Assembly: GCF_000819865.1 (NCBI RefSeq)
Contig: NZ_CDDF01000014.1
Coordinates: 1-64,000 of the forward strand
DNA length: 64,000 bases
Origin: Aeromonas eucrenophila
GTDB lineage: Bacteria; Pseudomonadota; Gammaproteobacteria; Enterobacterales; Aeromonadaceae
Reading direction: 5' to 3'
The notes beneath the pieces are model-generated. The model ran no database searches. It worked only from the letters and a program-made list of their open reading frames with translations, and was not told where the DNA came from. The first letter of the stretch is position 1. Every line of letters starts with the position of its first letter. The position numbers and the translations under genes are program-made. Of this stretch, positions 1 to 2,340 are shown in pieces.

Positions 1-460
1 CGATAGACTGGGCTTTTTTCGTTTCGGCTATCTGAAAACTCAGAGATCTGTACCCTCTCTAACGACCAGTGGCAAAAAAGTAACGACTTGATCCCTATGG
101 CTTGCTCTCTGTGTTCCACTGAGGCCCTGCAGCCACTCGCACTCGTAAGAGGCTCTGCCCTCTTCGTCTCCGCTTTCCCTTTATCTCTTTAGCCTCACGC
201 TCAGGTATGAGCTGCTACTCGCCCCATGTCTGAGAACAAGCTCAGGATGAGATGGCCACAGCGGCTATTCAACCCGTTGTTTCCCGAGGCAGGGATGCTT
301 CAGGATCCCTGCATACCAGATGCCATTCCAGGCTCCTGGGTAGCTTTGTAGCGACAGCGATCGGATGAAACGCTACCTGATGATGCTTGTATGGTGGATT
401 GATTAGGTATGGCTGGTTATGGGTAGTAGATATGGGGAGTTATTTTTATAAATAGCATAT
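1..460. other. Non-coding stretch at left edge
   Basis: I see no convincing gene here on either strand. The first bases include a T-run (gggcttttttcg, about 10-21) that looks like the tail of a terminator whose gene lies outside the window. The remainder has stops in all frames and no ribosome site followed by a sustained reading frame. A few GGA-containing patches (about 240-310) resemble CsrA-type motifs but do not form an ordered hairpin array, so I do not call a second RNA. Confidence 0.5.
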
Positions 461-491
461 AAAAGAAAAGGGGACGGCGTCTGCCGTCCCC
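461..491 (-). terminator. csrB intrinsic terminator
   Basis: The stem GGGGACGGC/GCCGTCCCC (470-478 with 483-491) has a 4-nt loop. On the minus strand it is followed by TTTTCTTTT at 469-461. Confidence 0.9.
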
Positions 492-954
492 TCAAGTCAT
501 CTAGTCCAGTCCCTGAACTGCCATGCTCCCTGCAATCCCTGACTCTTTATCCTGTCCTTTGGAATTTCCCCTTCCCAATCCGTTGGGGTGTCCTGTGGCC
601 ATCCTAGCCTGGCAATCGTTCCTGATTGCTTCACCCTCTCCATCCTGGAGGTGTCCATTACCACATCCCGTGGTGTTCCTTGCGTCTTCCTGACAGATAA
701 CCATCCAAGTTATCTCGCTTCATCCTGAAGCTGTTCCTGTCGCCTCCGGCGAGGTTCCTTACATCCTGAAGAGCGATAATCCGTACCACTCTGCCTCGTC
801 CTGAGGTGTCCACCACATCCTGTGGCTGTCCTGTCAATCCTTGGTGATAACCATCCGGGTCATCAGCCTCATCCTGAGGTGTCCTGCCACATCCTGTGGC
901 CTTCCCTGTTTATGCGCCGTTTCTGCATCCTGCCGAACCAGCGCCGTCCTTGTG
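461..954 (-). ncRNA. csrB: CsrB-type CsrA-sequestering sRNA
   Basis: On the minus strand this is a run of about twelve short hairpins whose loops contain GGA, most of the form caGGAtg closed by a 5-6 bp stem, with further GGA motifs in the linkers. Examples in plus-strand coordinates: stems 886-891/895-900, 867-871/875-879, 845-852/858-865, 813-817/821-825, 794-798/802-806, 717-722/726-731, 696-701/709-714, 660-664/670-674, 638-642/646-650, 612-617/624-629. Over 30 GGA triplets fall between 484 and 951. This is the architecture of enterobacterial CsrB, which binds many CsrA dimers and relieves CsrA repression. The RNA ends at a strong intrinsic terminator (470-491) with a T-rich tail at 461-469. 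The 5' end is inferred from the promoter at 961-988, giving about 490 nt, longer than E. coli CsrB (about 370 nt). The small reading frames inside it are chance. Confidence 0.9.
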
Positions 955-960
955 AGACCC

Positions 961-1054
961 ATACTAAGGCAACCGGGAACGGGAACAAGGCGTGATTCGC
1001 CATTGAAAGCGGTGAGACGGTGAATGAATATTGAACTGTAAGAGTAATTTCCCT
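961..1054 (-). promoter_or_regulatory. csrB promoter with candidate UvrY/GacA site
   Basis: On the minus strand TTGTTC (988-983) and TAGTAT (966-961) are separated by 16 bp and fit sigma70 -35 and -10 boxes, putting transcription start near 954. About 90 bp further upstream lies TGTAAG (plus strand 1037-1042), N6, TTCCCT. The first half matches the GacA/UvrY upstream element TGTAAG-N6-CTTACA; the second half is poor. csrB genes are classically activated by BarA/UvrY, so the position fits, but the site is half-degenerate and unproven. Confidence 0.55.
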
Positions 1055-1055
1055 T

Positions 1056-1256
1056 TTATATTAATAGCTTATTTAGTTTCCTGGGAAAGCATAGCGACCA
1101 TGGGATGGCTTCACGTACGGTTCAACGATGAGGGGTCTTACAGGGGGAATGGCGGATCTCTCACAACCAAAAATTGGCAGGAAAACGATGGTACAGAGGG
1201 TTCAATCAGGGGTGTAATAGTTAAAATTTTATTGAATGAATATGCCTGAAAAACAG
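1056..1256. other. Non-coding segment with a domain V-like motif
   Basis: The plus strand around 1092-1124 contains ...TTCACGTACGGTTC followed by a G-rich stretch. This resembles the 3' half of group II intron domain V and its junction to domain VI. The 5' half of the presumed hairpin is poorly conserved and no intron-encoded reverse transcriptase is nearby. A decayed intron 3' fragment is possible; the 72-codon reading frame across it (1031-1249) does not look like a real protein. Confidence 0.3.
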
Positions 1257-1307: not shown

Positions 1308-2294
1308 TCAGCTGACCCGGGTGCCAGGAGTCGGATATGCCTTGCGCAGGGATTCTGGCGCCAGCACTTCCAGGTTGCCACTCATGTTGTTCAGCCAGGA
1401 GCGGAACTCGGGGGTGTCCTGCACTTCCGTTTCTACCACCACGCTGCGCTTGTCGTAGCGAGTCATGCGCGGGTTGTGGCCAGGGATCTGCCCATCGATC
1501 AGGGTCGGGCAGTTGGCATCGATGCGACCAACGAAGCGGATGGGGCCGCTGACGTCCTGATAGCCTTGCTCGCGGATCAGCTTCTGGACATTGAACTCCT
1601 TCGGCTGGGTCGCGCTGAAGTTGGTCAGCTCCACGTTTTTGATGTGATCGAACGGGATGCCGTAGACCTTGGGATCCAGCTCGGACAGGGTGCAGAGCAG
1701 CACGGGGCCATCCGGCTGGTTCAGAATGCCGAGCGGGTTGATGCGGTCATAGCAGAGCCAAACGGTACGCTCCTTGATGACGCGCTGGATCTCGGCGCTG
1801 AACTTGCGACCACGCCACAGGGCATCGCGGATCAGGGTGCTGCGACGGATCTCCGGGTTGCCGGCGAAGGGGCGTGGCGACTGGTGCACGCTCTCGAGCC
1901 AGCGCTCAGCCAGTTCGCTCTGGCTGTCGCGGATGACCTGACCGGCCTTGTCGATCAGCGGGTTCAATTCGGTCAGCACGCTGGCCGGCAGCAGTTGGCT
2001 CGCCTGATCACTCCAGGTTTTCAGGGCCACTGCCAGGGAGAGCGGCATGATGTTGGCAAAGTCGTTGAGGCCATGGCGCTCGAAACACCAGCCATGGGGT
2101 TTGCTGCGCTCATCGGAGGTGAGGTCGAACAGTCCCATACCGGACATCTCTTCCAGGTCCCGTTGCACGGTACGCAGACTGACGTGAATGCCTTCCTCTT
2201 CCAGTTTTACCTGAAGTTGGCTGGCGGTCAGCTTGTAAGGGCGGTGCGGGATGCAACGCGCCAAGGTCAGTTGTCGTAACAGCTTCTTACTCAT
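1308..2294 (-). CDS. WYL-domain transcriptional regulator (YafY-like)
   Basis: A 328-aa protein with an N-terminal helix-turn-helix of the DeoR/HTH_11 type (about residues 5-60, including SLRTVQRDLEEM). The central/C-terminal part fits a WYL domain, with a NPLGIL stretch and the IKNVELT region. WYL regulators bind DNA as dimers and usually respond to a nucleotide or nucleic-acid-like ligand; the ligand here is unknown. I prefer ATG at 2294, which has AAGG about 9 nt upstream, over a GTG at 2309. Two GCGACA-based palindromes lie about 45-90 bp upstream and may be autoregulatory operators. The gene is followed by a strong terminator and has no operon partner. Confidence 0.8.
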   Translation of the reverse strand: MSKKLLRQLTLARCIPHRPYKLTASQLQVKLEEEGIHVSLRTVQRDLEEMSGMGLFDLTSDERSKPHGWCFERHGLNDFANIMPLSLAVALKTWSDQASQLLPASVLTELNPLIDKAGQVIRDSQSELAERWLESVHQSPRPFAGNPEIRRSTLIRDALWRGRKFSAEIQRVIKERTVWLCYDRINPLGILNQPDGPVLLCTLSELDPKVYGIPFDHIKNVELTNFSATQPKEFNVQKLIREQGYQDVSGPIRFVGRIDANCPTLIDGQIPGHNPRMTRYDKRSVVVETEVQDTPEFRSWLNNMSGNLEVLAPESLRKAYPTPGTRVS

Positions 2295-2340
2295 GGTGCA
2301 TGCCTTCACTGGTTTAGCGTTGAGGTTATCCTAGCTAGCA

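What the first reader, a model, noticed from the sequence alone, without database searches (positions are those of the whole stretch)
461..954. Unannotated large CsrB-type RNA with over 30 GGA motifs
The minus strand carries a regular array of GGA-loop hairpins, a terminator and a sigma70-like promoter. It is longer and richer in GGA than E. coli CsrB, so a single RNA could titrate many CsrA dimers. Gene callers would leave this region empty or report false short ORFs (for example 501-704).
Basis: partly seen in the sequence, partly recalled or inferred. Interest (0 to 1): 0.6.

Follow-up and report, generated by a model that had tools for sequence, protein, structure and literature searches.

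The report
Large CsrB-type CsrA-sponge RNA in Aeromonas
This stretch encodes a long, non-coding RNA of the known CsrB family that most likely soaks up the regulator protein CsrA when the BarA/UvrY sensor switches it on; it is an unusually large but otherwise ordinary member of a well-known family, one of three such RNAs found in this Aeromonas genome.

Summary
The minus strand at about 954-465 encodes a ~490-nt CsrB-family RNA with 38 GGA motifs (E. coli CsrB: 369 nt, 22). Rfam CsrB (RF00018) hits 750-458 at 126 bits (cut-off 71) but leaves the 5' ~200 nt unmodelled. Alignment of 22 Aeromonas sequences shows 98% paired cells and 23 base pairs with double-sided compensatory changes, including in that 5' part. 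Promoter, terminator, an IHF-like site and a UvrY-type box (1165-1149) are conserved in about 23 species, laid out as at E. coli csrB. In the window's genome that box pattern occurs exactly three times, each upstream of a GGA-rich RNA: this one, a 279-nt CsrB sibling, and a third that scores below Rfam's cut-off and is syntenic with E. coli csrC. The genome also has a UvrY orthologue and a single CsrA. The extra length looks like ~74-nt module duplication; the A. salmonicida group lacks one module. Verdict: new member of a known kind; transcription and CsrA binding are inferred, not shown. Less ordinary by-products: the third RNA and, in another genus of the order, CsrB RNAs built from 51-nt minisatellites.

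The parts
465..954 (-). CsrB-type RNA gene, about 490 nt, 38 GGA motifs; the 3' end may run to about 461
   Evidence: conserved promoter and terminator, GGA count, covariation
458..750 (-). part of the RNA matched by Rfam RF00018 CsrB (126 bits); the 5' ~200 nt (751-954) is not covered by the model
468..493 (-). intrinsic terminator GAGGGGACGGCAGACGCCGTCCCCTT followed by TTCTTTTATA
   Evidence: conserved in the alignment
961..988 (-). promoter: -35 TTGTTC (988-983), 16-nt spacer, -10 TAGTAT (966-961)
   Evidence: conserved in about 23 Aeromonas loci; weak by consensus and not reported by the scan
1059..1071 (+). IHF-like site TATTAATAGCTTA (one mismatch to WATCAANNNNTTR) between the UvrY box and the promoter
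   Evidence: read directly from the sequence; region conserved; function inferred from E. coli csrB (PMC4682653)
1149..1165 (-). UvrY/GacA-type box TGTGAGAGATCCGCCAT, centred near -203
   Evidence: E. coli csrB has TGTGAGAGATCTCTTACA at -183/-182 (PMC4682653)
1136..1142 (-). second half-site TGTAAGA, 5 bp downstream of the 18-nt box, where E. coli csrB has TGTAGGAGA
   Evidence: PMC4682653
826..905 (-). internal module A (about 75 nt, several GGA hairpins and linkers)
   Evidence: self-alignment A-B score 67 against a shuffled maximum of 35; repeat spacing 74
750..830 (-). internal module B; one A/B-type module is missing in A. salmonicida, A. bestiarum and A. popoffii
673..755 (-). internal module C, diverged
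   Evidence: A-C score 52 against a shuffled maximum of 31
591..675 (-). internal module D, the start of the part shared with the small sibling RNA
   Evidence: A-D score 57 against a shuffled maximum of 32
1308..2309 (-). upstream neighbour, a 333-aa protein that looks like a WYL-type transcription regulator; conserved synteny in 23 Aeromonas species, not part of the RNA
   Evidence: family name by inspection only

Best explanation
A UvrY-activated, untranslated CsrB-family RNA. Phosphorylated UvrY binds the TGTGAGAGATC box about 200 nt upstream, with IHF bending the DNA, and drives a weak sigma-70 promoter. The ~490-nt product folds into about 15 short hairpins with GGA in the loop plus unpaired GGA linkers. 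These bind many CsrA dimers (up to roughly 15-19 by motif count, an inference) and so keep CsrA away from its mRNA targets. It works with two sibling RNAs under the same box. Shown here by computation: the RNA gene, its structure, its family membership, the conserved control region, and the presence of UvrY and CsrA. Inferred from E. coli: UvrY and IHF binding, transcription, CsrA titration.
For: RF00018 hit at 126 bits. GGA enrichment beyond shuffles. 98.3% of cells paired and 23 pairs with double-sided changes, against 9.5 in column shuffles and at most 4 when partners are slid. Promoter, UvrY box and terminator conserved in about 23 species. The box pattern occurs three times in the own genome, all upstream of GGA-rich RNAs, with 0 for the reversed control. 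Over 37 genomes 86 of 87 sites lie upstream of one of these RNAs and the controls are 0 (assigned by hand). UvrY orthologue at 75% identity. One CsrA gene.
Against: No transcript, CsrA-binding or UvrY-binding data were available. The -35 element is poor by consensus. Four of the 38 GGAs are in stems. The box keeps only the first half of the E. coli palindrome. The box pattern was drawn from these same loci, so its count tests specificity rather than discovery.
Confidence: 0.95

Rival explanations
1. A CsrB-derived locus that is degenerate or silent, a leftover of duplication, with the small sibling doing the work.
For: A second CsrB-type RNA exists in the same genome, and siblings are largely redundant in Vibrio tasmaniensis (PMC6262261).
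Against: Promoter, box, terminator and pairing are under visible constraint across about 23 species. It has the best CsrB score and the most GGA in the genome.
Confidence: 0.03
2. A short protein-coding region (ORF 501-704 or others) rather than an RNA gene.
For: Open frames of 50-67 codons exist on both strands.
Against: Frame not conserved: orthologues stop after 15-69 codons or read on to the end of the alignment. Indels are not in threes and base pairing covaries.
Confidence: 0.01
3. A purine-rich repeat or compositional accident with no RNA function.
For: G+A-rich strand.
Against: GGA count above all 500 dinucleotide shuffles, compensatory pair changes, RF00018 hit.
Confidence: 0.01

Closest known systems
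CsrB/RsmB RNA family (Rfam RF00018), E. coli CsrB
   Same: GGA-loop hairpin array, 3' terminator hairpin, UvrY inverted repeat far upstream with a second half-site 5 bp on and an IHF site between box and promoter (PMC4682653)
   Different: 490 nt and 38 GGA against 369 nt and 22; the 5' ~200 nt lies outside the Rfam model; different genomic neighbour (WYL-type regulator gene here, syd/yqcC in E. coli)
Small Aeromonas CsrB sibling (G000:C18:77279-77573)
   Same: shares the 3' part, the CAGGGAGCA motif, a UvrY-type box (TGTAAGACATTCGCCAT) and the promoter layout
   Different: 279 nt and 17 GGA; lacks the 5' modules; different locus
E. coli CsrC and its likely Aeromonas counterpart (G000:C3:57093-57357)
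   Same: same type of UvrY box, GGA-rich, terminator; syntenic with csrC between yihA-type GTPase and yihI genes
   Different: only sub-threshold or no RF00018 score; 13-19 GGA in about 320-370 nt; in Aeromonas a cytochrome c4-like gene lies between it and the GTPase gene
Vibrio CsrB/C/D siblings
   Same: three sibling RNAs under one response regulator (PMC6262261, PMC6550530)
   Different: separate loci and sequences; no internal 74-nt module described in the passages read

Membership tests
CsrB/RsmB (RF00018) | covariance-model score above the gathering cut-off | tested here: met
   126 bits against 71
CsrB/RsmB (RF00018) | many GGA motifs, mostly in hairpin loops or unpaired | tested here: met
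   38 GGA, 34 unpaired, 15 GGA loops
CsrB/RsmB (RF00018) | conserved, covarying hairpins | tested here: met
CsrB/RsmB (RF00018) | own promoter and intrinsic terminator | tested here: met
   terminator; promoter by conservation; weak by consensus
CsrB/RsmB (RF00018) | UvrY/GacA-type upstream site | tested here: met
   binding itself not tested
CsrB/RsmB (RF00018) | genome encodes CsrA and a UvrY orthologue | tested here: met
CsrB/RsmB (RF00018) | RNA is transcribed and depends on UvrY | not testable with these tools
   needs RNA-seq or Northern blot in wild type and uvrY deletion
CsrB/RsmB (RF00018) | binds and antagonises CsrA | not testable with these tools
   needs gel shift or CLIP
RsmY (RF00195) / RsmZ | covariance-model score above the gathering cut-off | tested here: not met
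   RsmY 16.8 bits against 57; no RsmZ row

The most novel reading that the evidence does not exclude
CsrA-sponge RNAs grow and shrink by whole GGA-hairpin modules: about 74 nt in Aeromonas, where the A. salmonicida group lacks exactly one, and 51 nt in another genus of the order, where one RNA holds 3 to 13 near-identical copies and 22 to 62 GGA. CsrA-titration capacity would then be tuned by repeat copy number, as in a minisatellite. Alongside, Aeromonas would have a dedicated three-RNA UvrY regulon whose csrC-like member Rfam misses.
Probability: 0.5. Interest if true: 0.55.

Novelty: new member of a known kind. Interest (0 to 1): 0.33.

Why it matters
CsrA/UvrY circuits control metabolism, biofilm and virulence traits, and uvrY is already known to matter for virulence in A. 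dhakensis (PMC7250320), where the RNAs in between have not been described as far as the searched literature shows. Naming all three sponge RNAs, with their true ends, makes that pathway testable. The modular length change gives a simple handle on how many CsrA sites a cell needs.

Tried and rejected
Simple offset autocorrelation did not show the module (top offset no better than shuffles), probably because of indels; local alignment and repeat search did. The consensus promoter scan missed the promoter. RsmY and the human lncRNA match on the plus strand are below cut-off and taken as chance. The coding hypothesis for ORF 501-704 was rejected. One extra box in G020:C55 has no GGA array downstream. 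The genus with minisatellite CsrB RNAs is unnamed in the collection; a guess at Moritella found no paper and is left open.

Full report
WHAT WAS CLAIMED. A large CsrB-type RNA on the minus strand at 954-461 with over 30 GGA motifs, a promoter and a terminator.

The minus strand 960-461 has 38 GGA, 21 AGGA, 15 CAGGA and 7 CAGGATG. 500 dinucleotide-preserving shuffles give 23.8 +/- 3.0 GGA (maximum 31) and 0.16 CAGGATG. No other non-overlapping window of that size in the 64 kb exceeds 23 on the minus strand or 18 on the plus strand. The terminator is found by the scanner at 493-468. The RNA folds better than shuffles (z -3.8). Rfam RF00018 matches 750-458 minus with 126 bits, cut-off 71, and is the only Rfam hit in the window above the curated cut-offs. 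The same model gives E. coli csrB 380 bits.

THE ORGANISM AND RELATIVES. The neighbouring 333-aa WYL-type protein is 98-99% identical to those of A. aquatica, A. caviae and A. tecta, so the window is Aeromonas. In 23 Aeromonas loci the same position downstream of that gene holds 32-42 GGA. It is absent there from A. diversa, A. simiae, Aeromonas sp. RU39B and A. cavernicola, and from Zobellella, Oceanimonas and Oceanisphaera.

ENDS OF THE RNA. Alignment of the intergenic region shows CTTGTTC - spacer - CTTAGTATGGGTCTCACAAGGACG conserved. Read as -35 TTGTTC (988-983), 16-nt spacer and -10 TAGTAT (966-961), this puts the start near 954 and the length at about 490 nt. Orthologues with clear ends are 486-502 nt, except 422 nt in A. 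salmonicida and A. bestiarum and 413 nt in A. media.

STRUCTURE. On 22 sequences (A1) the RNAalifold consensus, restricted to local helices, has 98.3% of cells paired. It has 23 pairs with changes on both sides, against 9.5 +/- 1.9 in column shuffles and at most 4 when partners are slid by 1-3 columns. Because the structure was derived from the same alignment, the slid control flatters the percentage paired; the double-sided changes are the stronger evidence. Helices 1-7 (the 5' part, largely outside Rfam's model) hold 15 of the 23. Fifteen hairpin loops contain GGA, and 34 of 38 GGAs are unpaired in the window sequence.

CONTROL REGION. TGTGAGAGATCCGCCAT at 1165-1149 is strongly conserved. 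In E. coli the UvrY site at csrB is TGTGAGAGATCTCTTACA centred at -183/-182, with TGTAGGAGA 5 bp downstream and an IHF site between it and the promoter (PMC4682653). Here the 18-nt box is centred near -203, TGTAAGA follows after 5 bp (1142-1136), and an IHF-like TATTAATAGCTTA lies at 1059-1071. The first half of the box is kept; the second half-palindrome is not.

ONE BOX, THREE RNAs. The pattern TGTRAGANATYNNCCAT occurs exactly three times in the 4.54-Mb genome: upstream of this RNA, of a second CsrB-type RNA (C18:77279-77573, 279 nt, 17 GGA, 86 bits), and of a third GGA-rich element (C3:57093-57357, 17 GGA in 331 nt, reverse strand 0). Over 37 Aeromonas genomes there are 87 sites; by position 86 lie upstream of one of the three RNAs, and the reversed pattern gives none. 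The exception lies near an Hcp-like gene without a GGA array. The pattern was derived from these sites, so this shows specificity, not independent discovery. The third RNA is found in 33 of 37 genomes but scores at most 27 bits against CsrB, and nothing in Rfam reaches its cut-off in the four orthologous loci scanned. Its GGA count alone is only moderately above a mononucleotide shuffle (17 against 10.1 +/- 2.5); conservation, box, terminator and synteny carry the case. In the own genome it lies between a cytochrome c4-like gene followed by a YihA-like GTPase gene on one side and a YihI-like gene on the other (gene names by inspection). E. coli csrC lies between yihA and yihI, so it is probably the csrC orthologue. 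The genome has one CsrA gene and a UvrY orthologue with 75% identity (the stop noted is its normal end).

HOW IT GOT LONG. Inside the RNA, ~75-nt segments repeat the order CCACAGGATGTGG / GGACACCTCAGGATGAGG / GATAACCCGGATGGTTATC. Local alignment scores are A-B 67, A-D 57 and A-C 52, against shuffled maxima of 31-35. These shuffles do not preserve the shared GGA-hairpin grammar, so part of the similarity could be convergence on that grammar; the repeat register (spacing 74 and 152) argues for duplication. The A. salmonicida and A. bestiarum RNAs lack about 74 nt between equivalent points of modules A and B, as unequal recombination would leave. In genomes G009, G027 and G029 a long and a short CsrB lie in tandem, each with its own box, which suggests that the siblings arose by tandem duplication and separated later (inference).

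NOT THE LARGEST. In another genus of the same order (unnamed in this collection) CsrB-type RNAs have GGA chains of up to 62 motifs over 798 nt, built of 51-nt tandem repeats (12.6 copies at 95% match in L188, 10.8 copies at 98% in L189). Across the species sampled, single RNAs hold 3 to 13 module copies and 22 to 62 GGA, mostly preceded by a UvrY-type box. Some of those contigs end inside or near arrays, so some counts may be truncated or misassembled.

LITERATURE. CsrB and CsrC are listed among the ncRNAs of A. salmonicida (PMC8780938), and UvrY is required for full virulence in A. dhakensis (PMC7250320), without the RNAs being characterised there. Multiple CsrB siblings and duplication are known in Vibrio (PMC6262261). 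No paper describing the Aeromonas RNAs in detail, or a CsrB minisatellite, was found in the searched open-access library, which is incomplete.

VERDICT. A CsrB-family CsrA sponge: real, well conserved, large but ordinary in kind. Interest is moderate and comes mostly from the three-RNA regulon, the csrC-like member missed by Rfam, and modular length change.

Noticed in passing
G000:C3:57093-57357 (L163, minus strand) and orthologues L155-L184: A third GGA-rich RNA with its own UvrY-type box and terminator, syntenic with E. coli csrC, present in 33 of 37 Aeromonas genomes but below Rfam's CsrB cut-off (at most 27 bits).
   Followed up: partly
G000:C18:77279-77573 (L047 1780-2074, plus strand): A second, shorter CsrB-type RNA (279 nt, 17 GGA, 86 bits) with box TGTAAGACATTCGCCAT, next to a methyl-accepting chemotaxis protein gene.
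   Followed up: yes
L188 (729-1527), L189, L190, L191, L193, L202: In another genus of the order, CsrB-type RNAs consist of 51-nt tandem repeats (up to 12.6 copies, 62 GGA over 798 nt); copy number differs between species, sometimes with two such RNAs in tandem.
   Followed up: partly
L125 (1792-2682), L126, L127: Three Aeromonas genomes carry a long (32-33 GGA) and a short (16-19 GGA) CsrB in tandem, each with its own UvrY-type box, possibly the ancestral arrangement of the two siblings.
   Followed up: partly
   Followed up: partly
L012, L013, L045, L008: A. salmonicida, A. bestiarum and A. popoffii CsrB RNAs lack one ~74-nt module (422 nt, 33-34 GGA); A. media (L008) is shorter too (413 nt, 32 GGA).
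   Followed up: partly
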